Of a DNA stretch of 57,551 nucleotides, positions 7,882-45,532 are shown one piece after another. The notes beneath the pieces are model-generated. The model was not told the DNA's origin. It worked only from the letters and a program-made list of their open reading frames with translations, and did no database searches. Numbering within the stretch: the first letter of the stretch is position 1; the number at the start of each line of letters is the position of its first letter. The stretch is from Ferrithrix thermotolerans DSM 19514 (GTDB lineage Bacteria; Actinomycetota; Acidimicrobiia; Acidimicrobiales; Ilumatobacteraceae), in NCBI GenBank assembly GCA_945861025.1, contig CAMASN010000013.1:1-57551 (forward strand). The letters run 5' to 3'. Both the position numbers and the translations under genes were made by a program.

Positions 7882-7976
7882 GAGCCGTCTCCAAATCCAA
7901 CGCCCCGGGGGGTGGGGCTTAGGGAAACAGTACGGACGCGGAGTATGAATCTGAATAGGCCAGTCGACCCATTTCG

Positions 7977-9050
7977 TTATGCAGTGGCAACGGCAGGGAT
8001 CTCGACAACGATAAAGGCGCCAAGGCCCTGCGGGTCGCACAGCGCCTCTGCCTCGCGGACACGGCTGCGCATGGTGAGAGCCGCCACCGTGGGTCGCGCG
8101 GCCTGGTCGTTCCAGATGCGTTGCCCTTCGGCCACAAGGTCGTCGATGCCCCAGCGCTGCAGGAACTGACTCTGCGTACGCACGTTGGCCACGTGGCCGC
8201 TGTTGACCAGCAGTTGATCGAGTGCAACCTCAGCAGTGATGTCTTGAGTGCCGGGTTCGGCAAGGTAGTGCCCGCCGCGCTCGTGGCCTCGGTAGGTACG
8301 CAACCACTCTCGCCACGGGCGCAGTGCTAAGCCAGCGGTGGTGGCGCTTGCGTAATCGACGACGAGCACTACACCTTGCGAAACAAGCGCCCTCGTTTGG
8401 GCAAGCCACTTGGCGGCTTCGCGCTGCACTGGCACGCGCGAACCGTGAGCCGCCGACGGCGGCAAGGGCAATTGGTCGAGGTCGTCGGCATGGCGCAGCA
8501 CCTCGGCGAAGGCTCCGTCGGGCCGCACGATCACGAACGCCTCACGCCAGCCGCCATCCATCACGAACAATCTGAACGCAAGATTGTCGAGCAGTTCGTT
8601 AGCGATGACGACGCCGACAATGGGTTCGGTGGGCAGAGAGGCTACCGACGTGACCCAGTCGGGGTGCGCCGCTCGTTGCTGGGCAGACACCTCGACAGCC
8701 ACATAACTCACAGCGTCGAGACAATCGGGCTGTGCTGCTCGAAAGGCACGCGCCAAGGTGCCTGGGCCGGCGCCAGCTTCGATAACCGTGAACTGATCGG
8801 GCTCACCGAGTTGATGCCACAGCGAATCGACCATGCGAGCAAGAACTGCCCCGAACAACGGCCCGACCTCGGGGCTGGTGATGAAGTCGCCTCGGCGACC
8901 AGCAGAGCCACCCGATGTATAGAAGCCCTGCTCGCCATACAAGGCAATATGCATGAAACGCTCGAAAGAAATTGCTCCGCCCGCCGCAACTATTGCGGCA
9001 CGGATTTCGTCAGCGGCTGAGAGCACCGGTGAGCGCGCTGAGGTCGCCAA
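7977..9050 (-). CDS. midA: MidA/NDUFAF7-family SAM-dependent methyltransferase
   Basis: The family (DUF185) contains mitochondrial NDUFAF7/MidA, an arginine methyltransferase needed for complex I assembly that modifies subunit NDUFS2 (NuoD homologue). The protein has the family's N-terminal FERFMHIALYGEQGFYTSG, the RRGDFITSPEVGPLFGAVLA block, and the SAM motif VIEAGAGPGTLARAF. These cover the full length expected (about 350 residues). The first possible start is TTG at 9050, which overlaps nuoN by 41 nt; GTG at 9026 (VLSAADEIRAA) would reduce the overlap to 17 nt and is an equal candidate. Neither has a strong ribosome binding site. It is the last gene of the first nuo cluster, directly behind nuoN, which strongly suggests that it acts on this complex I. 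The predicted substrate is Arg69 of the NuoD encoded at 16752-17924. Confidence 0.88.
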   Translation of the reverse strand: MATSARSPVLSAADEIRAAIVAAGGAISFERFMHIALYGEQGFYTSGGSAGRRGDFITSPEVGPLFGAVLARMVDSLWHQLGEPDQFTVIEAGAGPGTLARAFRAAQPDCLDAVSYVAVEVSAQQRAAHPDWVTSVASLPTEPIVGVVIANELLDNLAFRLFVMDGGWREAFVIVRPDGAFAEVLRHADDLDQLPLPPSAAHGSRVPVQREAAKWLAQTRALVSQGVVLVVDYASATTAGLALRPWREWLRTYRGHERGGHYLAEPGTQDITAEVALDQLLVNSGHVANVRTQSQFLQRWGIDDLVAEGQRIWNDQAARPTVAALTMRSRVREAEALCDPQGLGAFIVVEIPAVATA

Positions 9051-10527
9051 AGCGCAAGACCAAGCCGGGGAGAATACCGAGCACCAGAGTGCTGCTGCCG
9101 GTGATGACCAACGCCGCCAACAACGACGTCGGCGTGGTGATGGGCGCTGTGTCGCCGTCGGGAGCGGGCTTCATCCACATTTCGCGCATGATGTTGCCGT
9201 AGTAACCAAAGGCAACGACCGTGTTGACGGCACCGATGATCGCGATTGCGTATCCGAGCGTGGTGCCAGCTTCGAGCACTGCGCGGAACGCGTTGAGCTT
9301 GGCAAACCATCCGCCGAACGGAGGAATACCGGCCAACGATGCCAACAGGAATGTCATCAGCGCCGCCAGACCAGGCGCATAGGAGAACAATCCGCCAAAG
9401 CTAGAGATCTCACCGCTGCGCGTTTTGCGACTGACAGCGATGACCACAGCGAACACACCCAAGTTGGTGGCTGCATACGCCAGCAGATACACGACGACCG
9501 TCTTGAGCGATGTGCCCGTGGCCTTGGTGCCGGCAACAACCAGTGGCATCAAGATGAAGCCACCTTGGCTGATGGACGAGTAGGCCAACATACGAACGAT
9601 GTTGGTCTGCTTGAGCGCCACCACGTTTCCGACGGTCATCGTGAGTGCAGCGAGCACGAAGATGAACGGCTGCCACACCTTTTCGGCGTGAGGGAAAGCG
9701 AGATACAACATGGTGACGAGCGCAACGAAGCCGCCCGCCTTTGAGGCCACCGACAAGAACGCAGTCACCGGCGTCGGCGCACCTTCGTAGGTATCGGGTG
9801 CCCACGAATGAAACGGCACTGCGCTGACCTTGAAAGCGAAGCCAACAACGACGAACACAACAGCCAAAGCCTCAACGGCTTTGTACTGGCCGGTGATGGT
9901 GATGGCCTCGCCGATATCGACGAGCAAGGTGCTGTTGGCAACGCCGTAGAGCAGGCTCATGCCGTAGAGCAACATTGCGCTAGCGAACACACCGAGCAAG
10001 AAGTACTTCATGCCCGCTTCGTTGCTCTTGGTGTCGCGCTTGCGCCACGCGGCCAACATGTAGGCGGGGATCGACAAGAACTCAAGCGCCACAAACACAC
10101 CAATGAGATCTCGCGCCGAGGTCATCATGACCATGCCGAGCACGCTGGCGAGCAACAGCACGTAGTACTCGCCTTGGTAATAGCCACCTTCTTCGATCTC
10201 GTTGGTGGACAGCAACACCACGACATAACCGGTAATGAGGAACATCGCTTTCATGATCAGGCTGAAGTTGTCGACCACATAACGACCATCGAACATCGAG
10301 CGCACTTCGCTGCCAACGACCGCAAGGGTGACGACGGGAAGGAGTGCTGCAAGCAAGCTGAAACCGGCAAGCGTTGCCGTGAGCCATTTCTTAGATTCGC
10401 TGACGAAGAGATCGACAATGAGTACGACGCAGAGGCCGGCCGCAAGGATGATCTCGGGCGCGAGCGCGTGATAGTCGACCTTCGGCGGCGTGAAGCCGCC
10501 CCCGGCAACGAGGAGCGAAGCAAGCAC
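9010..10527 (-). CDS. nuoN: NADH-quinone oxidoreductase subunit N, copy 1
   Basis: This is one of the three antiporter-like, proton-pumping membrane subunits of complex I. The 505-residue product is almost entirely hydrophobic segments and has the expected length. The conserved pump residues are visible: the lysine in AFKVSAVPFHSWAPDTYEG, then PTPVTAFLSVASKAGG with its second lysine. The start is a GTG at 10527, 3 nt after the nuoM stop, giving MLASLLVAGGGFTPP. It is the last structural gene of this nuo operon and overlaps midA. It is paralogous to the subunit encoded at 30842-32377 but clearly diverged from it. Confidence 0.95.
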   Translation of the reverse strand: MLASLLVAGGGFTPPKVDYHALAPEIILAAGLCVVLIVDLFVSESKKWLTATLAGFSLLAALLPVVTLAVVGSEVRSMFDGRYVVDNFSLIMKAMFLITGYVVVLLSTNEIEEGGYYQGEYYVLLLASVLGMVMMTSARDLIGVFVALEFLSIPAYMLAAWRKRDTKSNEAGMKYFLLGVFASAMLLYGMSLLYGVANSTLLVDIGEAITITGQYKAVEALAVVFVVVGFAFKVSAVPFHSWAPDTYEGAPTPVTAFLSVASKAGGFVALVTMLYLAFPHAEKVWQPFIFVLAALTMTVGNVVALKQTNIVRMLAYSSISQGGFILMPLVVAGTKATGTSLKTVVVYLLAYAATNLGVFAVVIAVSRKTRSGEISSFGGLFSYAPGLAALMTFLLASLAGIPPFGGWFAKLNAFRAVLEAGTTLGYAIAIIGAVNTVVAFGYYGNIMREMWMKPAPDGDTAPITTPTSLLAALVITGSSTLVLGILPGLVLRFGDLSALTGALSR

Positions 10528-10530
10528 GGG

Positions 10531-12174
10531 TCAGCCCTGCCCGAATGCCTTGAGGGTGAGGTTCACCGCTGGATCGATGATCTTGAACATCAGTTGCGGG
10601 TACACACCGAACACGACAATGGCAAGCAGGAACGGAGTCCACGCAACCCACTCGAAGAAGGTGACGTCGTGGATGTCGCCGGAATGATCGTCGTGATCAT
10701 GAGCGTCGTCGTGACCGTGGTCGTCGCCCTGAGCGGCATGCCCATGACCGTGGCCGTCGGGGTGACCAGTGCTGGCGCCAGCGAACTCAGCCTTGGGCTG
10801 ACCAAATGCCACGCGTTGGAACATCCACAACAGGTAGCCAGCAGCAAGCACCGTGCCGAGCGCAGCAATCACCATAAACACGCGAAACACGTTGTGGTTC
10901 AAGCCTGCGGCTGGCGAGTACGCCGAAATGATCGCGGGGAACTCGCCCCAGAAACCGGCAAGGCCTGGCAAACCGAGCGACGCCATAACGCAGAATCCGA
11001 GGATCCAGCCCATGCGTGGCATCGAGATGAGCATGCCGCCGAGACGCTTGATCTCGAGCGTGTGATAACGGTCCTTCACCGATCCGGCGACGAAGAACAA
11101 CATGCCAGTGATGAGGCCGTGAGCGACCATGCCGAAGATCGCAGCGTTGAAACCCAGCGGAGTGAGCGTCGAGATACCGAGCATCACGAAGCCCATGTGA
11201 GCCACCGAGCTGAACGCAATGAGACGCTTCATGTCGGTCTGAGCCAGACAGCCAAGCGCACCATAGATAATGCCGATGACTGCGAGGCCACCAATCCACG
11301 GTGCCCATGCTTTTGCGGCCACAGGCAGGATCGGGATGGCAATACGCACGAAGCCATACGTTCCGAGCTTCAGCAGAATTGCGGCAAGGATGACCGAGCC
11401 CTGAGTAGGAGCCTGGGTATGCGCGTCGGGCAGCCACGTGTGGAACGGGAACATCGGAACCTTGACCGCGAAGCCGATGAACATGCCTGCGAAGATCCAG
11501 ATCTGAACCGAGCGACCCAGCAGACCGCCGTGCTCGGCGAGATAGGCAATGTTGAAGCTCGCTTCGCCTGCGGGCACCTTGCCCGACACCTGGAAGTAGA
11601 GCGCCAAGAAAGCAACGAGCATGAGCGCCGAACCGAACATCGTGTACAAGAAGAACTTAAGCGAGGCGTACTGGCGATCTTCGCCACCCCAGACACCGAT
11701 CATGAAATACATCGGCAAGAGCACGAGTTCGAAGAACACGAAGAACAAAATGAGGTCCTGCGCCACGAAGGTACCGGCCATGCCAACCTGCAGCACGAGC
11801 ATCAAGATGAGGAATGCCTTGGGATTACCCGGCGACGGGATGTGGTCCCACGAGTAGATCATCACTAACACGGTGACGACCATGCTCAAGATGTACAGCG
11901 GCAAGCTCAAGCCGTCGAGACCGACGGTGTAGTTGCTGTGAATCACCTTGATCCACGACGTGTCGGCAAAGAACTGCAACTTTTCGGAACTGCCGTAGTT
12001 GAACTTGGTCAGCGAATAGATGCCGACAAGCAGTGTCGCAACCGCCGTGAGCAAAGCGATCTGCTTGTGCAGCAGTTCCTTGCCCTTCGGGACGAACATC
12101 ATGACGAGTACACCGACGAGCGGCAGGAAGGTACCGATCGTGAGTAGCGCGTTATTGGTGCGGAGTACTTCCAT
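10531..12174 (-). CDS. nuoM: NADH-quinone oxidoreductase subunit M, copy 1
   Basis: This is an antiporter-like proton-pumping subunit of complex I (547 residues). It contains the conserved FFELVLLPMYFMIGVWGG with the key TM5 glutamate, AVKVPMFPFHTWLPDAHTQ with the pump lysine, and SVILAAILLKLGTYG. The C-terminal part holds an unusual loop of about 35 residues rich in His and Asp (ten His; roughly 10670-10768). In a standard 14-helix fold this loop lies between the last two helices on the cytoplasmic side. The second NuoM in the window lacks this insertion. ATG start at 12174, 14 nt after nuoL. Confidence 0.95.
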   Translation of the reverse strand: MEVLRTNNALLTIGTFLPLVGVLVMMFVPKGKELLHKQIALLTAVATLLVGIYSLTKFNYGSSEKLQFFADTSWIKVIHSNYTVGLDGLSLPLYILSMVVTVLVMIYSWDHIPSPGNPKAFLILMLVLQVGMAGTFVAQDLILFFVFFELVLLPMYFMIGVWGGEDRQYASLKFFLYTMFGSALMLVAFLALYFQVSGKVPAGEASFNIAYLAEHGGLLGRSVQIWIFAGMFIGFAVKVPMFPFHTWLPDAHTQAPTQGSVILAAILLKLGTYGFVRIAIPILPVAAKAWAPWIGGLAVIGIIYGALGCLAQTDMKRLIAFSSVAHMGFVMLGISTLTPLGFNAAIFGMVAHGLITGMLFFVAGSVKDRYHTLEIKRLGGMLISMPRMGWILGFCVMASLGLPGLAGFWGEFPAIISAYSPAAGLNHNVFRVFMVIAALGTVLAAGYLLWMFQRVAFGQPKAEFAGASTGHPDGHGHGHAAQGDDHGHDDAHDHDDHSGDIHDVTFFEWVAWTPFLLAIVVFGVYPQLMFKIIDPAVNLTLKAFGQG

Positions 12175-12188
12175 TGCCGTGAGGCTCC

Positions 12189-14378
<2,190 letters not shown>

Positions 14379-14381
14379 GGC

Positions 14382-14681
14382 TCAGCCCTTCATCTCAGAG
14401 AGTTCGTCAAGCGCGATGGTGCGCTTGTTGCGGTAAATCAGCAGAACCAAGCCGAGACCAACACCAACTTCGGCGGCAGCCACGGCAATGACATAGAGCG
14501 CAAACACGTGGCCATCGGGGCTGCCGTTGCGTAAGGCAAACGCCAACAAGTTGAGGTTCACGGCGTTGAGGATGAGTTCGATGGCCATCAGCACCATCAC
14601 AGCGTTTTTGCGGGCGATGACGCCATAGATACCGATGCAGAACAGCACGGCACCAAGCAGGAGGAATTCATTGATCAGCAT
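14382..14681 (-). CDS. nuoK: NADH-quinone oxidoreductase subunit K, copy 1
   Basis: This is a small three-helix membrane subunit of complex I (99 residues, the family's usual length). The two membrane glutamates needed for proton transfer are present, in MAIELILNAVNLNLLAF and AVAAAEVGVGLGLVLL. ATG at 14681, 6 nt after the nuoJ stop and 3 nt before the nuoL start. The C-terminal LDELSEMKG tail matches the ending of the second NuoK in the window (DDIAELKG). Confidence 0.96.
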   Translation of the reverse strand: MLINEFLLLGAVLFCIGIYGVIARKNAVMVLMAIELILNAVNLNLLAFALRNGSPDGHVFALYVIAVAAAEVGVGLGLVLLIYRNKRTIALDELSEMKG

Positions 14682-14687
14682 CGGGCA

Positions 14688-15203
14688 TCAATCCTTACGG
14701 GCCAAGACAATGGCGCCGATGACGGCGACGAGCAACACGAACGACAGCGCCCAGAACGGCAGCAAGTAGGGCTTGAAGATTGCGTCAGAGACGGCTTGTG
14801 TATCGATGCGTACGGCCGTTGATGGCGAAGGAAGCTTCTCGTCTGTGAAGCCGCCGACCAGAGCGATAGCCATTGCGGCGAACATGGTGAGCGCAACCGG
14901 AATGCCCAGTGCCCAGTTCTTATTGTTGAGGTCGTTCTCGTTACCGATGCGCGCGCGGGTGAGCATGACACCGAACAAGAACAGCACCATCACGGCGCCC
15001 ACGTAGACCAAGATTTGGGTGATGGCCACGAACTCGGCGTAGACCAACAGGTACTGCGCTGCAGCGCCAGCGAGCACACACACCAGCCACAACGCAGCGT
15101 GCACCACGTTCTTGCTAGTGACCACGCGGATGGCTCCGACGATCATCACTGTGGCGATGATGCCGAACGAAATGTTTTGGGCGACCAAGGTTTCGGCAAG
15201 CAT
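14688..15203 (-). CDS. nuoJ: NADH-quinone oxidoreductase subunit J, copy 1
   Basis: This is a membrane subunit of complex I with five predicted helices (171 residues). The TM3 signature, where a pi-bulge forms in known structures, is seen in QILVYVGAVMVLFLFGVML. The nuoI stop and this ATG share one base (TGATG at 15203); a GTG one codon earlier (15206) is also possible and would give a GTGA overlap. The loop between TM4 and TM5 is slightly extended and hydrophilic (FTDEKLPSPSTAVRIDTQAV). Confidence 0.94.
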   Translation of the reverse strand: MLAETLVAQNISFGIIATVMIVGAIRVVTSKNVVHAALWLVCVLAGAAAQYLLVYAEFVAITQILVYVGAVMVLFLFGVMLTRARIGNENDLNNKNWALGIPVALTMFAAMAIALVGGFTDEKLPSPSTAVRIDTQAVSDAIFKPYLLPFWALSFVLLVAVIGAIVLARKD

Positions 15204-15703
15204 CACTTCTTGCCCTTCTTGTCAGCGCCGACCTCAAGCTCGGGAGCTTCGGGAACGGTCTCCATCCATTCGCCAAGCTTGGTCTTGTCGTGCAACAAGT
15301 CGGCAATCTTGGGCTCGCTGTATTCGTACTCTGGGCTCCAGAACAACGCATCGAATGGGCACACCTCGACACAGATGCCGCAATACATGCACAACGCGTA
15401 ATCGATGTCGAAACGGTCGAGCTTGTTGACCTTGCGCGGTGCGCCCCCAGCGCGACGTGGCGGCGCGAGTTCTTTGTGACCCTCGATGTAGATGCACCAG
15501 TCGGGGCAGCTGCGGGCGCAGAGCATGCACGATGTGCAGTTGTCTTCGCGTAGGGCGATGACACCACGAGCACGAAGCGGTGGGGCTTCTTTTTCGTGTG
15601 GATACTGAACGGTGTTGGAACCCTTGGTGATGGTGGCCATCATCGTGTTGAACGTGACTCCAAGGCCCTTAACGAGGCCCGGAACCTTTGGCTTGAGACC
15701 CAT
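15203..15703 (-). CDS. nuoI: NADH-quinone oxidoreductase subunit I, copy 1
   Basis: This 2x[4Fe-4S] subunit carries electrons toward cluster N2 in the peripheral arm of complex I. The two cluster motifs are [12 protein letters not shown] and [12 protein letters not shown]. The product is 166 residues from the ATG at 15703. I rejected upstream in-frame starts because the ATG overlaps the nuoH stop as TGATG and the protein then begins with the amphipathic [18 protein letters not shown] typical of NuoI. The C-terminus ([20 protein letters not shown]) differs from copy 2. With no nuoEFG in this operon, this subunit would be the natural entry point for an alternative donor such as ferredoxin. That is inference. 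Confidence 0.95.
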
Positions 15704-16752
15704 CAGAACACCACCTTCAAGACAGCGGTGAGCATGATGTTGCCAAGCGACACAGGAATGAGCACCTTCCAAGCGAACCGCTGCAGTTGATCTTCGCGGA
15801 AACGGGGATAGCTGAATCGGATCCACATGATGAGGAAGACAAGTCCCATCATCTTGGTGAACATAATCAGCGGACCGACGATGTTCATCCAGTTATCGAT
15901 CTGATCGATGTTGTTCCAGCCGAACCAGCTGAACGGGATTCCCCATCCGCCGAGGAACAGCACCGAAGCGATCATTGCGAACACACCAGCAGTTGCGAAC
16001 TCGGCGATGAAGAAGATGAGGAAGCGGAAGCCCGAATACTCGGTCATGTAACCCGACACGAGTTCGGATTCGGCGACGGGCATGTCGAACGGAGCCTGAG
16101 TGAGTTCGGCTTGTACAGCAATCATGAAGACTGCGAACCCGATGAACTGGGTGAGGATGTATGGATTGCCGAGGCCACTCCAACCAAAGATCTCGCCAGC
16201 GTTTTGCGCCACGACGATCTGTTGCAGGTTCATTGTGCCGGCCTGGATGACGACGCCGACAACAGCGAGCACCATTGGCAACTCGTACGCGATGAGCTGA
16301 CCGGCAGCACGCAGGCCACCGAGCAGTGAGTACTTGTTGGCACTGGACCAGCCAGCGATGAGGATGCCGAGCACGCTGACTGAGCTGACGGCCAATGCGT
16401 AAAACACACCGGTCTCAAAGTTGGTGAACAACGCATCGGGTCCGAATGGCACCACTGCGACGAGCAAGAACGTGCTGGCGAGCACGATGAGCGGCGCAAT
16501 CTTGAAGATCGAGTGATCGGCCTTCTCGGGCATGATGTCTTCTTTTTGCAGCCACTTGCCAACCTCGGCGAACAACTGCATCGAGCCGTAGGGCCCAGCT
16601 TCCATCGGTCCAAGCCGACTCTGCATGAAGCTCATCATCTTGAACAAAAAGAGGTAGACGATGGTGCCGGCGGGGAGCAAGACAGCGACCAGGCCGCCAA
16701 GCACCCGGAGCAACGACTGCGCCCAGTAGGGAAATTGAACTGCAAGCATCAT
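15703..16752 (-). CDS. nuoH: NADH-quinone oxidoreductase subunit H, copy 1
   Basis: NuoH anchors the peripheral arm and forms much of the quinone tunnel. The 349-residue product has the [19 protein letters not shown] block near the first cytoplasmic loop and [20 protein letters not shown], then [10 protein letters not shown], the acidic loop lining the quinone site. The start is one of two adjacent ATG codons at 16752 and 16749; the first shares a base with the nuoD stop (TGATGATG). Longer in-frame readings upstream are not hydrophobic and lie within nuoD. It diverges from copy 2 (for example TQAPFDMP against NRPPFDLV). Confidence 0.95.
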
Positions 16753-17924
16753 CAGCGGTCGATGTCTCCGAGAATGAAGTACAGCGACGCCAAGATGGTG
16801 ATGACGTCGGGCACGTATACACCGCGCAGCAACCACGGCACGATCGAGATGTTGTTGAAGCTGGCCGAGCGGATCTTCACGCGGAACGGGCCAAGATCGC
16901 CCTTGCTCACCACGTAGTAGCCCATCTCACCGAGTGGGTTTTCGGTGCTCACCCATGCTTCGCCTTCGGGCACCTTGATGATGCGCGGCACCTTGGCCAT
17001 CACTGGACCGGCCGGCAACGTGTCGAGCAGTTTCTCGACAATGAGGGTTGCCTCGCGGGTTTCCTGCAAGCGGACCCAGCATCGAGCGAAGCTGTCGCCG
17101 TCTGAATGAGTCCAGACCTTGAAATCAACCTTGTCCCAAGCCATGGCGATCTTCTGATCACGACGGAGGTCGTAATCGACGCCGCTGGCACGAAGGTTGG
17201 GGCCCGACAGGCCATATTGCAGCGCCACATCTTTGGGGATGACACCAATGCCGCGGGTGCGACTCTGAAAGATCTCATTGCCGAAAAGCAGATCGTCAAT
17301 CTCGTCGCAGAACGTGCGCAGCTTACGCATCACGCTGCGGGTCTCCTCGATCCAGCCCTTGGGCAGATCGTCTTTGAGCCCGCCGATGCGGTCGAAGTTG
17401 GGGTGGAAACGACCACCGGTTGCGCTCTCGATGAGGTTGAGCACGTATTCGCGATCTCGGAATGCCATGAACACCGGGGTGATCGCGCCGAGTTGCACAC
17501 CAAGGTCACCGAGGAACAACGACACGTTGGCGATGCGGCTGAGCTCGAACAAGATCGTGCGAATGTGCTGCGCACGCGGTGGCGCCTCGATGTCCATCAA
17601 CTTCTCGGCGGCAAGGATGAACGGAACCTCGTTCGCAAAGCTGCCCAGCCAGTCGATGCGGTTCACCAGCGAGGTGACCTGCGGGAAGGTGCGCACTTCG
17701 GTGAGCTTTTCGTAGCCACGGTGCATGTAGCCCGCGGATGGCTCGGCCCAGACAACCTGCTCGCCATCGAGGCGACAGATAATGCGCAACGTGCCATGGG
17801 TAGCAGGGTGCTGCGGCCCAATGTTGAGGGTCATGCCCTCTGTTTCGAGTTCGACGTTCAGGCGAGCATCGGCGGCTTGCGACGCGATGTAGGCCAAACG
17901 CTGACGGTCACCGAGCATGGTCAT
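16752..17924 (-). CDS. nuoD: NADH-quinone oxidoreductase subunit D, copy 1 (Tyr-to-Trp at quinone site)
   Basis: This is the 49-kDa-type subunit that forms the quinone pocket with NuoB (390 residues). The quinone-contacting histidine is present ([13 protein letters not shown], His43). The residue equivalent to the almost invariant quinone-binding tyrosine (RxDY in other complex I enzymes, RMDY in the second NuoD here) is tryptophan: NRIDWLGSF, Trp92, codon 17649-17651. The segment GYMHRGYEK has Arg69 (codon 17718-17720), equivalent to the arginine methylated by NDUFAF7 in mitochondria, whereas copy 2 has Thr there. It ends in FILGDIDR, as typical NuoD proteins do. The ATG at 17924 overlaps the nuoC stop by four bases (ATGA). 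Confidence 0.96.
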
Positions 17925-18592
17925 GATTCGCCACCATCTGCATCAGAGTTGTCGGCCGGTTCGCCTGGCAGTGGTTCGACATCGACGATGCCTGGCCACG
18001 GCTTCACCATGCGAGCCAACAACGGAAAGTCTTTACGCATCGGATGTCCCTCGAAGCCAGTCGGGAGATACATATTGCGCAGATCTGGATGCCCGGCAAA
18101 GTTGATGCCGAACATTTCGTGAGCCTCACGCTCGTGCCAGTTGGCCCCGGTGTAGCAAGGGATCCAGGTTGGCATGGTCATGTCATCGCCAACGTCGGCC
18201 TTGATGGTGACACCGAAATGCAGCGTGGTACTGCAGGCCCGGGCGAACAACTGAAAGCGGGTCTCGCCACCGGTGTAGCCCTGGCGAATGGTCATATCGC
18301 GCTCGGCCTGAGGCTGCGTTGGGTCGTCTTCGCCGCGCCCAAACGGCGACGGCATCCAATCGATGGCTGATAAAAAGCAGAAGTAGTCGAGGCCCACCAC
18401 GTCGCGCAGCGCAATGCCCGCTTCATGCCACGCATCGGCGCGGACCCGCACCCAAACATCGTCGCCCGGCTTGACCAGCGTGTCGATCAGCGCATCGCCG
18501 AGTTCGGCGCGTAGTTGATCGACGGCACGCTCGCGCAGCGCATCGCCCGGCAACGCTGCGATAGGAGTATCAGTTGACGACAATTGGCTCAC
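17921..18592 (-). CDS. nuoC: NADH-quinone oxidoreductase subunit C, copy 1
   Basis: This is the 30-kDa-type peripheral arm subunit of complex I. The signature is [20 protein letters not shown] followed by [10 protein letters not shown]. The product is 223 residues, with a hydrophilic C-terminal tail ending in [16 protein letters not shown]. The start is a GTG at 18592 inside the end of nuoB (23-nt overlap), preceded by a weak purine-rich stretch. It is a separate gene, not fused to nuoD. It differs from copy 2 mainly in the N-terminal half. Confidence 0.94.
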
Positions 18593-19163: not shown

Positions 19164-19529
19164 CTACACCCATCGCAGGACGCCCTTGCGCCATGCGTAG
19201 ACGAGACCCAGCAGAAGAACGAAAACGAAGATACCCATCTCAACCAAACCAAAGCCGCCGTAGCGCTCGAGCTGTGTGGCCCACGGGAAGATGAACACTG
19301 CTTCGACGTCGAACACCACGAAGAGCAAAGCGAACACGTAGTAACGAATCTGGCTCTGCGACCATCCGTGGCCGACAGGATCGACACCACTTTCGTAGGA
19401 CATCAATTTTTCGCGAGTGGGCTTGTTCGGACGGATTGCCGCCGAGAGAGCCAACAAGAGCGCGGCGAGCAGCAAGGCTGTTCCGCCGAACCAAATAACG
19501 GTGAGGTAATCCCGGAGAAAGTCGGACAT
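19164..19529 (-). CDS. nuoA: NADH-quinone oxidoreductase subunit A, copy 1
   Basis: This is a small three-helix membrane subunit next to the quinone tunnel (121 residues). The conserved loop between TM1 and TM2 has MSYESGVDP, and TM2 has FVVFDVEAVFIFPWA with its acidic pair. It is the first gene of the eleven-gene nuo operon (nuoABCDHIJKLMN). The ATG at 19529 has a poor ribosome binding site. A perfect CRP-type palindrome is centred about 30 nt upstream (19552-19567). Confidence 0.95.
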   Translation of the reverse strand: MSDFLRDYLTVIWFGGTALLLAALLLALSAAIRPNKPTREKLMSYESGVDPVGHGWSQSQIRYYVFALLFVVFDVEAVFIFPWATQLERYGGFGLVEMGIFVFVLLLGLVYAWRKGVLRWV

Positions 19530-30841: not shown

Positions 30842-32377
30842 TCAGCCGCCCGAGGCGGAACTGGCCACGTTGACAACGGTCTCGCTGAGTCCGATGAACC
30901 AACCTGGGTTGAAGCCCACGTACAACGTGAAGGCAACGCAGAACCCGATGGCGATTGCAGTGGACGCTGGAACTCGCAGAGCTTCGCGAGTATCGTCGCC
31001 GGCTTCGGGATCGGCCAGCCACATGCTGATCAAAATTCGCAGATACAAGAAGGCTGCGATGACCGCCGAAACCATAGCCACGATCGCCAGTGCGTAGCTG
31101 CGCTGGTCGACGGCGGCCTGAATGACACCAAACTTGGCGATGAACCCCGACGTGAGCGGAACGCCAGCCTGAGCCAACAAGAACACGGTGAGGGCCAGCG
31201 CCAACAGTGGCTTCTGACGCGCCAGACCACGGAATGAACCAAGCTCGGTAGCTGCATCGCCCGTACGGCCGACAACCGACACGATGGCGAACGTACCCAC
31301 GACCAACACGGCATAGATCAACAGGTAGAGCATCGTGCTGGGCATGCCGCGGCTTTCGGCAGACGAACCACCAACGTGGCCTGCAGCCTCGACACCGATG
31401 AGGATGAAACCTGCGTGGCTAATGGACGAATACGCGAGCATGCGCTTGACGTTGGTTTGCACCACTGCCGAGATGGAACCGATGACCAACGTGAGGATCG
31501 CGATGACCCAGACCACGGGACGCCAATCGTCTTTCCAGTTCGGCAACGCAATCACGAGCACGCGCAGCATGGCTGCGAACGCGGCCATCTTGCCGACGCT
31601 AGCGAAGAACGCAGTGACCGGTGTTGGCGAGCCTTGGTAGACATCGGGCGCCCAGAAGTGGAACGGCGCTGCGGCAACCTTGAACGAGAGTCCGATGAGC
31701 AACAACGCCACGCCTACGAGCACCATCGAGTCGCTGCGCTGTAACGAAACAAAATCGAATGAAGCGATAATGCGACCAAAGTTGGTGGAACCGGTGCCGC
31801 CATAAATGAGCGCCACGCCATACAAAAAGAAGGCCGACGAGAAGCCGCCAAGCACGAAGTACTTGATGCCGGCTTCTTGGCTCTCTGCTCGTTTGCGGTT
31901 GCTGGCCGCCAGCACGTAGAACGAAATCGACAGCGTCTCAAGACCGAGGAACAACACGATGAGGTCGTTCGACATAATCATCACGATGGCACCGATAACG
32001 GCCATGATGTAAAGCCCGTAGATCTCGGGGCCGTCCATGCCTTCGCGTCGCACGAAGTCGTCGGTGATGAGCGAAACCAGAATCAGCGCCAAGCAAACAA
32101 CGATGATGCCAAACATTGAGAAGTGGTCATACGCCAACGCGTCGCCAATGATAATCCGCGCGCCCGTGTCGGAGATGCGGCCCCACTGAAAGCAGACAAC
32201 CACGATGGTGGCGACAGCGATAGCGATGGTGCTCAACGAATACAGATGCTTTGGCCATGGTGGCGTCAGCGATGCAGCGACGAGCAGCACGAGGCCACCG
32301 CCCAGCAAAATGAGCATTGGCGCAATGGCGAACCAGTCGATTGACGGGGCGATAAACGGAGTGGCGGCGAGGTTCAC
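30842..32377 (-). CDS. nuoN: NADH-quinone oxidoreductase subunit N, copy 2
   Basis: This antiporter-like membrane subunit of complex I has 511 residues. The pump-lysine region is SFKVAAAPFHFWAPDVYQG, followed by PTPVTAFFASVGKMAAF. I chose the GTG at 32377, which overlaps the nuoM stop as GTGA; the longer in-frame reading upstream lies inside nuoM and is not hydrophobic. It is the last gene of the 21-gene respiratory operon. Compared with copy 1 its N-terminus is longer and its loop sequences differ throughout, consistent with an ancient paralogue rather than a recent duplicate. Confidence 0.95.
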   Translation of the reverse strand: MNLAATPFIAPSIDWFAIAPMLILLGGGLVLLVAASLTPPWPKHLYSLSTIAIAVATIVVVCFQWGRISDTGARIIIGDALAYDHFSMFGIIVVCLALILVSLITDDFVRREGMDGPEIYGLYIMAVIGAIVMIMSNDLIVLFLGLETLSISFYVLAASNRKRAESQEAGIKYFVLGGFSSAFFLYGVALIYGGTGSTNFGRIIASFDFVSLQRSDSMVLVGVALLLIGLSFKVAAAPFHFWAPDVYQGSPTPVTAFFASVGKMAAFAAMLRVLVIALPNWKDDWRPVVWVIAILTLVIGSISAVVQTNVKRMLAYSSISHAGFILIGVEAAGHVGGSSAESRGMPSTMLYLLIYAVLVVGTFAIVSVVGRTGDAATELGSFRGLARQKPLLALALTVFLLAQAGVPLTSGFIAKFGVIQAAVDQRSYALAIVAMVSAVIAAFLYLRILISMWLADPEAGDDTREALRVPASTAIAIGFCVAFTLYVGFNPGWFIGLSETVVNVASSASGG

Positions 32378-33942
32378 GGGTGTGCTTCCTGCGACGTTGA
32401 GACAGGTTGCGGTTCGACGTAACCGGTCTTGTCGCTGATGTGCGAGATCAATGCGTTCACGCTTGGCTGGATGCGGTCGAGCATCGGCTTGGGATACACG
32501 CCGCAGAACACGATGGCTGCAATAAACGGCAGCAGCACCATGCCCTCTTTCCATCGCAGTTCGGCAAAGGACTTGTTGTCTTCGTCGGGCTCACCGTGGA
32601 ACACGCGCTGGTATGCCCACAACAAGTAGAGCGCGGCGAGGATCACGCCAGACGCTGCGACCACGGTCCACCAACGAGCGGTGAGGAATGAGCCAATGAG
32701 CACCAAGAACTCGCCGACGAAACCGTTGAGTCCAGGCACGCCAATAGACGACAACATCACGAGGGTGAAGGCTGCGGCGAATACAGGGGCCACGCTTTGG
32801 ATGCCCTTGAGGGCCGAGATTTCTCGAGTGTGGCGACGTTCGTAGATCATGCCCACAAGCAAGAACAAGGCGCCGGTAGAAACACCGTGGTTGATCATCT
32901 GCAACACACCGCCGCTGATCGACTGTGAGGTCATCGCGAAGGTGCCCAACACGATGAACCCAAGGTGGGCAATCGACGAGTAGGCCACGAGCCGCTTGAG
33001 ATCTTTTTGCATGGTGGCCGCAATGGCGCCATACAAGATGCCGATAACCGCAAGGGTGAGGAAGATGGCCCGAGTGTTGCGTGCTGCTTGCGGGAACAGA
33101 TACAAACCAAAGCGCAAGAAGCCGTAGGTTCCGAGTTTCAGCATGACACCGGCAAGCACCACTGAGCCCGCAGTGGGCGCCTCGGTGTGTGCATCGGGAA
33201 GCCACGTGTGCAACGGGAACATTGGCACCTTCACTGCGAAGGCAATCGCGAACGCGAAGAACAGCCATCGTGCAGTGGACGCCGCAAAGTTCGAGTCGTT
33301 CGCGAGCTCAACGAGGTCGAAGGTGACACGGCCGAGACTGTTCTTGGCCAACAGAACCGTCGCTGCTATGCCGACCAGCATGAACGCTGATCCGATCATC
33401 GTGTACAGGAAGAACTTGGTGGCGGCGTAGATGCGCTTGCCATGGCCCCAGCCGCCGATGAGGAAATACATCGGCACAAGCACGATCTCAAAGAACACGA
33501 AGAACAAAAACAGGTCGAGACTCAAGAAGCTGCCCATCACGCCAGCTTCGAGCAGCAACAACCAAGCGAGGTATGGCTTTTCGTCGTGATGTGGATCAAC
33601 GCCAACGATGGCCAGTGGGAACAACACGCCGGTGAGTACCACGAGAAACAACGAGATGCCGTCGACACCGAGATGCCAGCTGATACCCCAGCTCGAGATC
33701 CACTCGTGCTTACTGACGAGCTGGAAACCTGCATCGGCGGTTTTGAACGACCCCAACATCCATACGCTGATTGCGCCAGTGAACACGCTGAACAGAATTG
33801 CGGTGAGCTTGATCCACTCGGGCCGGCGCTTGCTCATCGAGGCCACAAGTACGGCACCGAGCACCGGCACAAGCACCAGAGCAGTGAGCAATGGGAAGCC
33901 CGATGCGGCCGCCCCTTCTGCGGCGAATGTGGCGGCGGTCAT
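32374..33942 (-). CDS. nuoM: NADH-quinone oxidoreductase subunit M, copy 2
   Basis: This is a proton-pumping membrane subunit (522 residues). It has FFEIVLVPMYFLIGGWGHG with the conserved glutamate, AVKVPMFPLHTWLPDAHTEA with the pump lysine, and VVLAGVMLKLGTYGFLR. The C-terminal loop (RVFHGEPDEDNKSFAELRW) is of ordinary length and has no His-rich insertion. The ATG at 33942 overlaps the nuoL stop by four bases. Confidence 0.95.
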   Translation of the reverse strand: MTAATFAAEGAAASGFPLLTALVLVPVLGAVLVASMSKRRPEWIKLTAILFSVFTGAISVWMLGSFKTADAGFQLVSKHEWISSWGISWHLGVDGISLFLVVLTGVLFPLAIVGVDPHHDEKPYLAWLLLLEAGVMGSFLSLDLFLFFVFFEIVLVPMYFLIGGWGHGKRIYAATKFFLYTMIGSAFMLVGIAATVLLAKNSLGRVTFDLVELANDSNFAASTARWLFFAFAIAFAVKVPMFPLHTWLPDAHTEAPTAGSVVLAGVMLKLGTYGFLRFGLYLFPQAARNTRAIFLTLAVIGILYGAIAATMQKDLKRLVAYSSIAHLGFIVLGTFAMTSQSISGGVLQMINHGVSTGALFLLVGMIYERRHTREISALKGIQSVAPVFAAAFTLVMLSSIGVPGLNGFVGEFLVLIGSFLTARWWTVVAASGVILAALYLLWAYQRVFHGEPDEDNKSFAELRWKEGMVLLPFIAAIVFCGVYPKPMLDRIQPSVNALISHISDKTGYVEPQPVSTSQEAHP

Positions 33943-35852
33943 TGAGCCACCCCCCGGAAGACAAACCAGGCGATGACAGCAACAGCGCCAACGCCGATGA
34001 GCGCTGCATAGGTGCGCACCAAACCGTTCTGGCCTTTACGCACGATGCCAGCAACCCCTTGCACGAGCTTGCCGGTGCCGTTGACCGCACCATCAATGAT
34101 GTGCGAATCGAACCACGCCACAGCGTCGAAGCTCTTTCGGCCCGGGCCACCCATCAGGGCCGACACGCCCTTGTCGTAATACCACGCATTGGCCAGCAGG
34201 TTTGGCTCGATGGCTTTCACCTTCTTCTTCGAATACACCATGTAGGCCGCTGTAATTCCGATGAGACCAATGGCCACTGCCACGCCGGCGAGGATCCACT
34301 TGATGTCCTCGGACCCTGCCTTCAGCGGACTCTCGGCGGTTTCGATGACTGGCTCAAGCCACATCTCAAGACGCTTGGTGCCATGGCTGAATGGCAACTG
34401 GATCAACCCGCCCACGATGGACAGGCCGGCGAGTACAACAAGAGGAAGCAACATCGTGACGGGACTCTCGTGCGGATGAACGTCGCCATGTGCGCCGTTC
34501 TCTTCGGCGTGATCGTTCCAGCGCGCCTTGCCGTAGAACACCATGATCACCTGCCGGGTCATGTAATACGCAGTGAGTAGTGCCGTGACGAGACCGACAA
34601 CCCACAAGATGGGACTCTTGTTCCAGGCGAACAACAAGATCTCGTCCTTCGACCAGAAGCCAGCGAACGGAGGCACGCCGGCAATCGCCAACCATCCGAT
34701 GATGAACGTGAAACCGGTGATTGGCATCAACTTGCGTAAGGCGCCCATGCGACGCATGTCTTGCTCACTGTTCATGCCATGGATGACCGAACCCGAACCA
34801 AGGAACAACAGTGCCTTGAAGAATGCGTGAGTGACCATGTGGAAGATGGCGGCCACGTAGGCGCCAGATCCGACAGCTAAGAACATGTAGCCAAGCTGAC
34901 TCACGGTGGAGTAAGCGAGCACCTTTTTGATGTCGTTCTGGGCTACGGCAACCAAGGCTGCGTACAACGCAGTGGCCGCACCGATTCCAGCAACGATCCA
35001 TGGAGCCCAATGCCAAGCGGCGATTGCGAGCACCGGCGCGGTACGCACCATGAGGTACACGCCGGCGGTCACCATGGTGGCCGCATGGATGAGCGCCGAG
35101 ACCGGGGTGGGACCTTCCATTGCGTCGGGCAGCCACAGGTACAAGGGCAACTGTGCGCTCTTACCAACGGCGCCAACGAACAGCATCAGCGCGATCATCG
35201 TGGCGGTGGACTGGGCGATACCACCATGGCTGGCTGCTTCATTCAGCGGGCCGTAGCTGAGCGTTCCGAGCGCTTGGAAGGTGAAGAACATTGCGACCAT
35301 GAAGCCCCAGTCGCCAACTCGGTTGGTGACGAACGCTTTCTTGCCAGCAGTAGCGGCCGACTCTCGGCTATGCCAGAAACTGATCAGCAGGTACGAGCAG
35401 GTACCCACACCTTCCCAGCCGAGGAACGTGACCAACATGTTCTCGCCGAGCACCAGCATGAGCATGCTGAACACGAACAAGTTGAGGTACAAGAAGAACT
35501 TGCTGAACTTGGGATCACCGTGCATATACCCAATGGAGTACAGGTGGATCAACGAACCAATGCCGGTGACGAACAGCGCCATCGTGATGGACAGCGGATC
35601 AGCAAGAAAGGCGAGGTCTACCGTGAGGTTGCCCGCCGGAATCCAGCTGAACAAGGTGTACACGTGCGAACGATCGTGGCTGGTCTTCGAGAGCAAGTCG
35701 ATGAACACGCCAACCGTGACCACGAACGCCGAAGCGGTCATCAGCGTGGCGACATAGCCAGCGCGTGGCTCACCAAGCTTGCGGCCGAGAACCAACACAA
35801 TGAGAAATCCTGCGAGCGGCAGGGCAGGGATCAACCAAATGAGGTCGAGCAT
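33939..35852 (-). CDS. nuoL: NADH-quinone oxidoreductase subunit L, copy 2
   Basis: This is the distal proton-pumping subunit of complex I (637 residues). It has GKSAQLPLYLWLPDAMEGPT, then SALIHAATMVTAGVYLM and KKVLAYSTVSQLGYMFLAVG. The loop before TM13 is modest (HAEENGAHGDVHPHESPV). The ATG at 35852 is 5 nt after the nuoK stop. The final residues VIAWFVFRGVAQ form the anchor helix after the lateral helix. Confidence 0.95.
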   Translation of the reverse strand: MLDLIWLIPALPLAGFLIVLVLGRKLGEPRAGYVATLMTASAFVVTVGVFIDLLSKTSHDRSHVYTLFSWIPAGNLTVDLAFLADPLSITMALFVTGIGSLIHLYSIGYMHGDPKFSKFFLYLNLFVFSMLMLVLGENMLVTFLGWEGVGTCSYLLISFWHSRESAATAGKKAFVTNRVGDWGFMVAMFFTFQALGTLSYGPLNEAASHGGIAQSTATMIALMLFVGAVGKSAQLPLYLWLPDAMEGPTPVSALIHAATMVTAGVYLMVRTAPVLAIAAWHWAPWIVAGIGAATALYAALVAVAQNDIKKVLAYSTVSQLGYMFLAVGSGAYVAAIFHMVTHAFFKALLFLGSGSVIHGMNSEQDMRRMGALRKLMPITGFTFIIGWLAIAGVPPFAGFWSKDEILLFAWNKSPILWVVGLVTALLTAYYMTRQVIMVFYGKARWNDHAEENGAHGDVHPHESPVTMLLPLVVLAGLSIVGGLIQLPFSHGTKRLEMWLEPVIETAESPLKAGSEDIKWILAGVAVAIGLIGITAAYMVYSKKKVKAIEPNLLANAWYYDKGVSALMGGPGRKSFDAVAWFDSHIIDGAVNGTGKLVQGVAGIVRKGQNGLVRTYAALIGVGAVAVIAWFVFRGVAQ

Positions 35853-35857
35853 GTCGA

Positions 35858-36178
35858 TTAACCCTTCAACTCGGCGATGTCATCGGCAGTAGCCGAAGGG
35901 CGACGACGCAGGATCGACACGATGATGCCCAGACCCACGACAACTTCGGCGGCGGCTACCACCATCACAAAAAAGACCGTGGTCTGTCCGCCAATATCAC
36001 CGAGCTTGCGAGCCAGCGCTACAAAAGTGAGGTTGACGGCGTTGAGCATGAGTTCGATGCACATGAACATCACGAGTGGGTTGCGGCGAACTAAGACACC
36101 AACCGAACCAATAGCGAACAGCAACGATGCGAGCACGAGATACCACGTGGTGGTGGGAGACGCGATGGCGAGATGCAT
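35858..36178 (-). CDS. nuoK: NADH-quinone oxidoreductase subunit K, copy 2
   Basis: This is the three-helix membrane subunit of complex I (106 residues). The conserved membrane glutamates are in [17 protein letters not shown] and [17 protein letters not shown]. The ATG at 36178 shares a base with the nuoJ stop (TGATG); a GTG at 36181 is also possible. The same GTGATG arrangement occurs at nuoI/nuoJ of copy 1. Confidence 0.95.
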
Positions 36179-36738
36179 CACTTGCTTCCCGCAGATGGGT
36201 CGGTTGCAGAACCGCTGCGGGGACGACGGGCCAAGAGCACCGTGCCTACCACTGCGATCACCAAGAGCACTGAGGTGATTTCAAAGGCGAACACATGGTT
36301 GCTGAACAAGTCGTTGGCCAACTGACGAATGTTTGAGTCGTGACCAGCATCGCCTGAGGCGATGTCGATGCCACGGCCGCGCACAACGAGCGAATCGCGA
36401 CTGCGAACAATCGCGGCGGCGACGAGACCAAACAGGCCCAAGCCAACAATGACTGCCAACGGCCGCTGCACCTTGACAGGGTCGATGCGCAATGCCTCAG
36501 CCTTATCAACGCCGAGCAACATAATGACGAACAAGAACAACACCACGATGGCGCCGGCGTACACAATTACTTGTACAGCCGCCAAGAAGTGAGCCTCTTG
36601 AGCAACGAACAACACGGCCACACCAAACAAAGTGAGGATCAGGCTGAGCGCAGCGTGCACCGGATGCGACCTCACGATCACACCAATGGCGCCAACAAGA
36701 ATCATTGCGGCGGCGCAGACGAAGACGAAAAGCTGCAT
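36178..36738 (-). CDS. nuoJ: NADH-quinone oxidoreductase subunit J, copy 2
   Basis: This is a five-helix membrane subunit (186 residues). The TM3 signature is [21 protein letters not shown]. The start ATG at 36738 gives [16 protein letters not shown]; longer in-frame readings fall in nuoI and are basic, not hydrophobic. The gap to nuoI is 2 nt. The loop between TM4 and TM5 is longer and more polar than in copy 1, and the C-terminus ends [10 protein letters not shown]. Confidence 0.94.
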
Positions 36739-36740
36739 CG

Positions 36741-37391
36741 TTACTTGTCCCTTGTTTCCTGCGCAGGTTCGCCAGTGCGGACTCCGTGGCCGAGTTCGCC
36801 ACTCCACCCCTCGATGCCTTCGAAATCGGCGCTGCCGCTTGGCGCGGTGGCGCGCATCCATCCACTGGTGAGTAGATCTTCGCCCTCGCGCCAGTCTTCC
36901 CAAGGCATGTGCTGCGGCTTGCCCTCATCGTCGACGAGCAACTCGTTCTTGGTGTAGATCGCATCTTGGCGATTGGTGAAGCTGAACTCGAACAACTTGG
37001 TTTCGGTGATGGCCTCGGTTGGACACGCCTCAACGCACAGGTCGCAATGGATGCAACGCAGATAGTTGATCTCGTAAACGAAACCAAAACGCTCGCCTGG
37101 CGAGGTGGGGTTGATCGCGTCGTTGTCAGCGCCGCGCACGTAGATGCACTTGGCGGGGCACACACCGGCGCAGAGTTCGCAGCCGATGCACTTTTCCATG
37201 CCGTCTTCGTAACGATTGAGCACATGGCGACCGTGAAGCCGCTCAGGCTTGGGCGCCTTTTCGTCGCCGACAAGTCCCTTCGCCACACTCTTTTTGTTGA
37301 CGCGCCCACCCGAATACTGCTTGGTGATGCGGTCTCCACCAAACAGACGGTGCTGCTTGATGGTCACGAGGAATCCGTCGAGATATCCCAT
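36741..37391 (-). CDS. nuoI: NADH-quinone oxidoreductase subunit I, copy 2
   Basis: This is the 2x[4Fe-4S] subunit of the peripheral arm (216 residues). The cluster motifs are [12 protein letters not shown] and [12 protein letters not shown]. It has a long C-terminal tail (about 60 residues past the second cluster region, ending EPAQETRDK) typical of actinobacterial NuoI of the full complex. The ATG at 37391 shares one base with the nuoH stop (TAATG). Confidence 0.96.
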
Positions 37392-44939: not shown

Positions 44940-44942
44940 CGG

Positions 44943-45530: not shown

Positions 45531-45532
45531 GA

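What the first reader, a model, noticed from the sequence alone, without database searches (positions are those of the whole stretch)
7977..17924. midA is linked to the one NuoD that has the methyl-acceptor arginine
NDUFAF7, the MidA homologue in mitochondria, dimethylates Arg85 of NDUFS2, which lies in an H-R-G motif. NuoD copy 1 has HRG (Arg69, codon 17718-17720). NuoD copy 2 has HTG (Thr104, codon 44071-44073) and cannot be modified there. midA is the gene directly after nuoN copy 1. The pairing predicts a bacterial complex I arginine methylation specific to one of two isoenzymes.
Basis: partly seen in the sequence, partly recalled or inferred. Interest (0 to 1): 0.75.

Follow-up and report, generated by a model that had tools for sequence, protein, structure and literature searches.

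The report
Methyltransferase gene tied to one NuoD
This bacterium has two versions of respiratory complex I, and the gene for an arginine-methylating helper enzyme sits only with the version whose NuoD subunit keeps the arginine that is methylated in mitochondria; in related actinobacteria the nuoD gene has left its operon and still sits near that helper gene.

Summary
midA (7977-9050, -) is the only PF02636 gene found in the genome. It overlaps the end of nuoN of the 11-gene nuo operon, whose NuoD has HRG (Arg69). The 14-gene operon's NuoD has HTG (Thr104). Among 197 genomes of the phylum, 62 hold midA and 60 of those hold an Arg-type NuoD. midA lies within 25 kb of Arg-type nuoD in 33 of 62. 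It is nearer to Arg-type than to Thr-type nuoD in all 16 genomes where one contig holds all three. In Streptomyces and several other families nuoD is missing from the 11-type gene set and sits near midA elsewhere. This points to NuoD as MidA's substrate. The Thr-type complex carries the arginine in NuoB instead, the known Thermus-Yarrowia switch (73 R/T, 45 T/R, no R/R or T/T of 124 pairs). Isoenzyme-specific methylation is well supported by genomics but untested chemically. Extra: this NuoD clade has Trp in place of the quinone-site tyrosine (104 distinct sequences; 0 of 125 others).

The parts
7977..9050 (-). midA: MidA/NDUFAF7-family (PF02636, COG1565) SAM-dependent methyltransferase; start TTG 9050 or GTG 9026
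   Evidence: PF02636 112.8 bits, only genomic copy found; PDB sequence hits 4f3n, 1zkd, 5ztz; AF2 pLDDT 90.3; Foldseek TMq 0.74-0.80 to COG1565/MidA structures
9010..10527 (-). nuoN1; stop codon 9012-9010 lies inside midA
   Evidence: TIGR01770 380 bits; codons read
10531..12174 (-). nuoM1
   Evidence: translation and position in operon
12189..14378 (-). nuoL1
   Evidence: translation and position in operon
14382..14681 (-). nuoK1
   Evidence: translation and position in operon
14688..15206 (-). nuoJ1
   Evidence: translation and position in operon
15203..15826 (-). nuoI1 (ORF; true start inside)
   Evidence: two 4Fe-4S cysteine motifs in translation
15703..16836 (-). nuoH1 (ORF; true start inside)
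   Evidence: NCBIfam NuoH models
16752..17924 (-). nuoD1, Arg type
   Evidence: NCBIfam NuoD models; PF00346
17718..17720 (-). Arg69 codon (CGT), HRG motif, predicted MidA acceptor
   Evidence: aligned to Nqo4 Thr64
17649..17651 (-). Trp92 codon (TGG), at the position of the quinone-site tyrosine (Thermus Tyr87)
17921..18592 (-). nuoC1
   Evidence: TIGR01961 86 bits
18570..19097 (-). nuoB1, Thr type; FRASPR replaced by LPASPR
   Evidence: NF005012 222 bits
18879..18881 (-). NuoB1 Thr73 codon (ACG): switch partner of Arg69
   Evidence: Yarrowia NDUFS7-T122 type
19164..19529 (-). nuoA1
   Evidence: NuoA2 query match 57 bits
43027..44382 (-). nuoD2, Thr type, in the 14-gene operon
   Evidence: TIGR01962 546 bits
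44071..44073 (-). Thr104 codon (ACC), HTG motif
44943..45530 (-). nuoB2, Arg type
   Evidence: NF005012 240 bits
45282..45284 (-). NuoB2 Arg83 codon (CGG): takes the place of the missing NuoD arginine; aligned to Thermus Nqo6 Arg83
30842..45994 (-). complete 14-gene nuo operon 2 (A to N)

Best explanation
MidA is a dedicated maturation enzyme of the 11-subunit (E,F,G-less) complex I. It symmetrically dimethylates Arg69 of NuoD1, beside cluster N2, before or while NuoD1 joins NuoB1, as NDUFAF7 does in mitochondria. The 14-subunit complex in the same cell does not need it, because its N2-side arginine comes from NuoB2 (Arg83) and its NuoD2 has Thr104. SHOWN here: gene overlap with nuoN1; Arg/Thr states; the reciprocal NuoB states; MidA fold (predicted model); linkage of midA to Arg-type nuoD across the phylum, including genomes in which nuoD has left the other nuo genes. 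SHOWN by others: Arg dimethylation in Paracoccus and mitochondria, and NDUFAF7 as the enzyme in human cells. INFERRED: that this MidA is active, that Arg69 is its substrate, that the product is symmetric dimethylarginine, and that complex 2 is untouched.
For: Single midA copy in the genome. Overlap with nuoN1. 60 of 62 midA genomes hold Arg-type NuoD. midA within 25 kb of Arg-type in 33 of 62, and nearer to Arg- than Thr-type in 16 of 16. In families f15, f16, f27, f36, f39, f54 no nuoD was found in any of 16 fetched regions around the Thr-type nuoB, other than the Thr-type nuoD of the neighbouring 14-type operon in L146, while their Arg-type nuoD stands apart from all other nuo genes in the stretch fetched and near midA (13 loci, L065-L070 and L075-L081; reading frames at most 6.7 kb apart). 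In named records 30 of 32 such lone nuoD loci have midA within 10 kb, in tandem or tail to tail, profile E-values 4e-32 or better. D/B switch: 73 R/T, 45 T/R, 0 R/R, 0 T/T, 6 R/other of 124 pairs. Fold match to Dictyostelium MidA 5ztz, TMq 0.78. Literature: PMC3750175, PMC3829151, PMC8042128 (passages).
Against: Arg-type NuoD persists without midA in 56 of 116 Arg-holding genomes (in at least two, G139 and G022, the nuoD contig ends early), so the arginine can work unmethylated, as in E. coli. Two midA genomes (G089, G196) show only a Thr-type NuoD, so MidA may have other substrates. In 29 of 62 midA genomes midA is not within 25 kb: 28 have no Arg-type nuoD on a midA contig, and G159 has it at 27 kb. 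In two same-class genomes (G055, G168) nuoN is not followed by midA. Some genomes carry several PF02636 matches (for example G159, G169). Outside the phylum, 0 of 32 Arg-type loci had midA within 10 kb by an actinobacterial MidA profile (14 of the 32 have a flank under 9 kb), although 19 of those 32 genomes hold midA. The R/T switch is a single event on the tree. Streptomyces-type MidAs have His in place of both acids of GDF.TSPE. No chemistry was seen.
Confidence: 0.77

Rival explanations
1. MidA acts on the 11-subunit complex as a NuoD-specific assembly chaperone, with little or no methylation of Arg69.
For: Linkage is to nuoD as a gene, not to its residue chemistry. Six f16 genomes have HRA instead of HRG and keep midA near nuoD. 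Streptomyces-type MidAs are divergent in the N-terminal TSPE motif.
Against: The SAM-binding glycine motif and NExxD are kept in the window protein (EAGAGPGTLA, NELLDN). Relatives are methyltransferases. midA is rare with Thr-only NuoD (2 of 27 genomes, against 60 of 116 Arg-holding; Fisher p 2e-5, not corrected for kinship).
Confidence: 0.1
2. midA is linked to the nuo genes by shared descent and operon convenience; its real substrate is another protein.
For: Much of the linkage is inherited within clades (trees). G089 and G196 have midA and no Arg-type NuoD found.
Against: Different arrangements keep the link: after nuoN, tandem with nuoD, tail to tail with nuoD. Where nuoD left the other nuo genes, midA is with nuoD, not with nuoN.
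Confidence: 0.09
3. MidA serves both complexes (other residues in operon 2), so there is no isoenzyme specificity.
For: Only one midA gene found for two complexes.
Against: NuoD2 has no arginine there, and NuoB2 Arg83 is followed by Val, not Gly. Thr-only genomes mostly lack midA.
Confidence: 0.04

Closest known systems
NDUFAF7 (human) / MidA (Dictyostelium, PDB 5ztz) acting on NDUFS2 Arg85
   Same: Same family and fold, same acceptor position in HRG, same partner arrangement (threonine in NuoB/NDUFS7)
   Different: Here it is tied to an 11-subunit, E/F/G-less complex while a second complex in the same genome has no acceptor; acceptor chemistry untested
Paracoccus denitrificans complex I with dimethylated Nqo4 arginine (PMC3750175)
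   Same: Bacterial complex I with the arginine in NuoD, symmetrically dimethylated
   Different: 14-subunit complex in Paracoccus (recalled); two complexes of opposite type in this genome
Thermus thermophilus complex I (Nqo4 Thr64, Nqo6 Arg83; PMC8042128) and M. smegmatis complex I (8e9g)
   Same: Operon 2 has the same swapped pair
   Different: Operon 1 of the same genome has the opposite, mitochondrial-type pair
Streptomyces nuo2 with separate nuoD2 (PMC3765725, PMC8388888; passages)
   Same: 11-type gene set without E, F, G; nuoD apart
   Different: In the window nuoD is still in the operon. The passages I read do not mention midA beside nuoD2

Membership tests
MidA/NDUFAF7 (PF02636, COG1565) | Profile match above curated cut-off | tested here: met
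   112.8 bits against cut-off 23.3
MidA/NDUFAF7 (PF02636, COG1565) | Family fold | tested here: met
   AF2 pLDDT 90.3; TMq 0.78-0.79 to 5ztz/5zu0, 0.79-0.80 to 4f3n/4g67, 0.74-0.76 to 1zkd; TMq 0.42 or less for the other entries among the 50 listed
MidA/NDUFAF7 (PF02636, COG1565) | SAM-binding glycine motif and NExxD | tested here: met
   EAGAGPGTLA and NELLDN in the window protein; role of the motifs recalled
MidA/NDUFAF7 (PF02636, COG1565) | Symmetric dimethylation of the NuoD/NDUFS2 arginine | not testable with these tools
   Needs mass spectrometry
Mitochondrial/Paracoccus-type arginine placement (NuoD Arg, NuoB Thr) | Arg in NuoD HRG, Thr in NuoB | tested here: met
   Operon 1: Arg69, Thr73
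Thermus-type arginine placement (NuoD Thr, NuoB Arg) | Thr in NuoD HTG, Arg in NuoB | tested here: met
   Operon 2: Thr104, Arg83
11-subunit complex I | nuoA-D and H-N without E, F, G | tested here: met
   Operon 1 gene list
Canonical quinone-reducing complex I site | Conserved quinone-site tyrosine in NuoD | tested here: not met
   Trp92 in NuoD1; NuoD2 has Tyr

The most novel reading that the evidence does not exclude
Actinomycetota keep a second, 11-subunit complex I whose NuoD carries a MidA-dependent dimethylarginine at N2 together with a tryptophan in place of the conserved quinone-site tyrosine. The cell thus runs two complexes I with opposite N2-arginine placement and different acceptor sites, and only one is under methylation control; selection kept nuoD near midA even after nuoD left its operon.
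Probability: 0.5. Interest if true: 0.78.

Novelty: new variant of a known kind. Interest (0 to 1): 0.62.

Why it matters
Why the arginine beside N2 is methylated is open (PMC8042128, passages). A cell with one complex that has the acceptor and one that lacks it is a built-in control: deleting midA should hurt one complex and spare the other. Streptomyces, with a lone nuoD near midA, makes this testable in standard laboratory strains. The Trp-for-Tyr change separates the arginine's role at N2 from its proposed role of stabilising the anionic tyrosine.

Tried and rejected
Rejected: 'HTG copy is simply defective for modification'. NuoB2 supplies the arginine.

Rejected as a rule: 'HRG implies midA'. 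22 midA-less genomes have HRG in a NuoD-like peptide, and 34 more have HRC, HRS or HRA.

Tested and not significant: midA tracks the glycine after the arginine. Raw counts look strong (97 of 106 midA+ rows have Gly, against 26 of 62 midA- rows; HRC 0 of 26 with midA). On the tree only 8 independent pairs exist on supported branches, 2.1 going the same way and 0.4 the other way on average, median p 0.5.

Rows dropped: from the HRG pattern hits I dropped by eye 16 of 100 genomes whose peptide was not NuoD-like. Nine further genomes with GF[VI]HRGLEK (f28, f41) were counted as hydrogenase-like, not NuoD: two were fetched (L155, L156), where they fall outside the other NuoDs on the tree, and the other seven were judged by peptide. 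From HTG hits I dropped G020 and one G078 place. In one search I thinned the Thr-type and NuoB loci before building the tree; I removed hydrogenase-like rows and half of the Streptomyces rows.

Tool slip: my 'A1' query in the scripts was a wrong frame; nuoA1 is 19164-19529, and 'A1' labels should be ignored.

Mended on re-check: two of the 16 nuoD-less regions are not tidy operons (L138, L139), and the miss at L187 is not a truncation, since 1.5 kb after nuoN hold no midA.

Literature searches that listed no paper whose title or opening abstract deals with midA beside nuoD2 or with isoenzyme-specific methylation: (open-licence PMC only; listings, not full reads). Searches bearing on the Tyr-to-Trp change. 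The key paper of Shahul Hameed 2018 is not held; I saw only its title, in a reference list and in PDB entry titles.
Full report
OBSERVATION. midA is 7977-9050 on the minus strand. The nuoN1 stop (TGA, 9012-9010) lies inside it whether midA starts at TTG 9050 or GTG 9026. It matches PF02636 at 113 bits and is the only match found in the genome G000. NuoD1 has GYMHRGYEK with Arg69 = CGT at 17718-17720. NuoD2 has GYLHTGMEK with Thr104 = ACC at 44071-44073. Operon 1 is A-B-C-D-H-I-J-K-L-M-N without E, F and G; operon 2 has all 14 genes.

WHAT THE POSITION IS. HMMER aligns NuoD1 Arg69 with Thermus Nqo4 Thr64, without gaps nearby. A passage of PMC3829151 gives Thr64 as the orthologue of human Arg85. 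Passages of PMC3750175 say the arginine is symmetrically dimethylated in cow, human, Pichia and Paracoccus, and is present but unmodified in E. coli. So bacterial methylation at this residue is already known. What would be new is specificity for one of two complexes in one cell.

THE THR COPY IS A KNOWN ALTERNATIVE DESIGN. Passages of PMC8042128 describe an 'intersubunit residue switch': Thermus has Thr in NuoD and Arg83 in NuoB, and the two arginines fill the same space. Here NuoB1 has Thr73 (18879-18881) and NuoB2 has Arg83 (45282-45284); NuoB2 aligns Arg for Arg with Thermus Nqo6 Arg83. The solved M. smegmatis complex (8e9g) is of the same Thr/Arg type. I read 189 distinct NuoDs from fetched loci; 124 had a readable nuoB within 4 kb. 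These give 73 R/T, 45 T/R, 4 R/W and 2 R/other in hydrogenase-like loci, and no R/R or T/T. On a NuoD tree of 153 sequences, built with the acceptor column masked, all 18 Thr-type rows form one side of one branch (SH-aLRT 97), so the coupled switch is one event in this sample, not many.

CO-OCCURRENCE. In 197 genomes of the window's phylum (at least 90% complete), PF02636 is in 62 and PF00346 in 179. An HRG pattern gave 84 genomes with NuoD-like or hydrogenase-like peptides, after I dropped 16 by eye; an HTG pattern gave 91. Of the 62 midA genomes 53 have HRG. Of the other nine, six f16 genomes have HRA near midA and one has HRS, so 60 of 62 keep the arginine; G089 and G196 show only HTG. The converse fails: a wider pattern shows 56 Arg-holding genomes without midA (22 HRG, 24 HRC, 4 HRS, 6 HRA; nine hydrogenase-like genomes left out). 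midA is in 60 of 116 Arg-holding and 2 of 27 Thr-only genomes, Fisher p 2e-5, not corrected for kinship. Among 32 Arg-type loci of other phyla, 19 genomes hold midA; the nine HRC ones hold none. A tree-based test of the glycine effect is not significant.

LINKAGE. midA is within 25 kb of an Arg-type nuoD in 33 of 62 genomes and of a Thr-type in 1 of 62, which is also an Arg-type case. Where one contig holds all three, the Arg type is nearer in 16 of 16. Of the other 29 genomes, 28 have no Arg-type nuoD on a midA contig and G159 has it at 27 kb. In a named set fetched by NuoD similarity (80 best of 586 relatives found), 41 of the 48 loci with the actinobacterial Arg-type NuoD have midA within 10 kb. 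Five of the seven misses are on contigs that end before the expected place; L187 has nuoN followed by 1.5 kb without midA, and L220 (Glycomyces) is a full-length miss. Eleven of the 41 have midA after nuoN (Ilumatobacter, Acidimicrobiaceae, Actinomarina and others; one record, L184, is titled Acidobacteria).

NUOD LEAVES THE OPERON BUT NOT MIDA. In families f15, f16, f27, f36, f39 and f54 the Arg-type nuoD stands apart from other nuo genes, with its reading frame at most 6.7 kb from midA's (13 loci, L065-L070, L075-L081). PF01058 finds NuoB genes elsewhere in all 21 genomes of these families that I searched. I fetched 16 regions around the Thr-type nuoB of these families (L135-L149, L154): none holds an Arg-type nuoD, and the only nuoD seen is the Thr type of the neighbouring 14-type operon in L146. 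Most show a run of nuo genes without nuoD; L138 holds only A, B, C, H, I, and in L139 B, C, H and I are spread over 12 kb. In the named set 30 of 32 lone nuoD genes have midA within 10 kb: Streptomyces, Kitasatospora, Actinomadura, Knoellia, Terrabacter, Actinoplanes, Micromonospora and others. Arrangements differ: immediate tandem, midA then nuoD (L207, L216, L219); tail to tail (L194, L206, L210); or a few kb apart. Two papers note that Streptomyces nuoD2 is apart from the nuo2 operon; the passages I read do not name its neighbour. On the Arg-type tree the f15 group sits apart from the f16 and Streptomyces groups, and within f15 G036 keeps nuoD near nuoB and has no midA while G006 and G021 have lone nuoD plus midA. 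So nuoD moved at least twice if this quick tree is right. I regard this as the strongest evidence that NuoD itself, not another subunit, is MidA's client.

MIDA PROTEIN. The AlphaFold2 model (pLDDT 90.3, pTM 0.89) matches 4f3n/4g67 (TMq 0.79-0.80), Dictyostelium MidA 5ztz (0.78) and 1zkd (0.74-0.76). The other entries among the 50 listed have TMq 0.42 or less. The SAM glycine motif, TSPE and NExxD are intact in the window protein; the three Streptomyces-type MidAs aligned have His in place of the acids of GDF.TSPE.

A SECOND DIFFERENCE BETWEEN THE TWO COMPLEXES. NuoD1 has Trp92 (TGG, 17649-17651) where Thermus has Tyr87, the tyrosine that PMC8042128 (citing simulations) says the arginine stabilises as an anion after quinone reduction. 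104 distinct NuoDs have Trp there, all with the YMHR motif of the actinobacterial Arg clade; none of 125 other distinct sequences does, three of which are hydrogenase-like. One YMHR sequence outside that clade (L292) has Tyr. The nearby histidine is kept. NuoB1 also lacks the arginine of FRASPR that is hydroxylated in mammals. I infer an altered quinone site, but no acceptor is known. A paper on Actinomarinales, read in passages, noted two nuo clusters and suggested F420 as donor for the EFG-less one; this genome has one FrhB/FdhB-type gene, which does not settle it.

VERDICT. The pairing is real, general in the phylum, and more than chance. Isoenzyme-specific methylation is the best explanation (0.77; lowered by 0.01 on re-check because L187 and G168 show nuoN without midA after it) but has not been shown chemically.

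Noticed in passing
17649-17651 (Trp92 of NuoD1): Trp replaces the quinone-site tyrosine in 104 distinct actinobacterial Arg-clade NuoDs and in none of 125 others; suggests an altered acceptor site of the 11-subunit complex.
   Followed up: partly
18570-19097 (NuoB1): The FRASPR arginine that is hydroxylated in mammalian NDUFS7 is absent (LPASPR), while NuoB2 keeps it.
   Followed up: partly
L065-L081, L135-L149, L190-L222: nuoD has moved away from the other genes of the 11-type nuo set and stands near midA in several actinobacterial families.
   Followed up: yes
L264-L270, L278-L291, L232-L253: Many NuoDs have HRC, HRS or HRA instead of HRG; no genome with HRC NuoD had midA (0 of 24, 0 of 9), but the pattern follows clades.
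   Followed up: partly
L274 and L085-L091, L263, L272-L277, L293-L298: NuoDs with Phe two places after the arginine (YMHRGF, HRAF, HRSF) come almost only from midA-less genomes, in two separate parts of the tree.
   Followed up: partly
L166 and L287 (genome G135): A genome of family f20 holds an Acidimicrobiia-like 11-type nuo plus midA cassette besides an HRS-type NuoD: transfer or binning error.
   Followed up: no
6613-8040: Cell-wall-like protein with SpaA_2 domains (PF19403) just downstream of midA on the same strand; the ORF as called overlaps the end of midA.
   Followed up: no
G000:C3:65189-65635: One FrhB/FdhB C-terminal domain gene (PF04432), a possible F420H2-oxidising partner for the EFG-less complex.
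   Followed up: no
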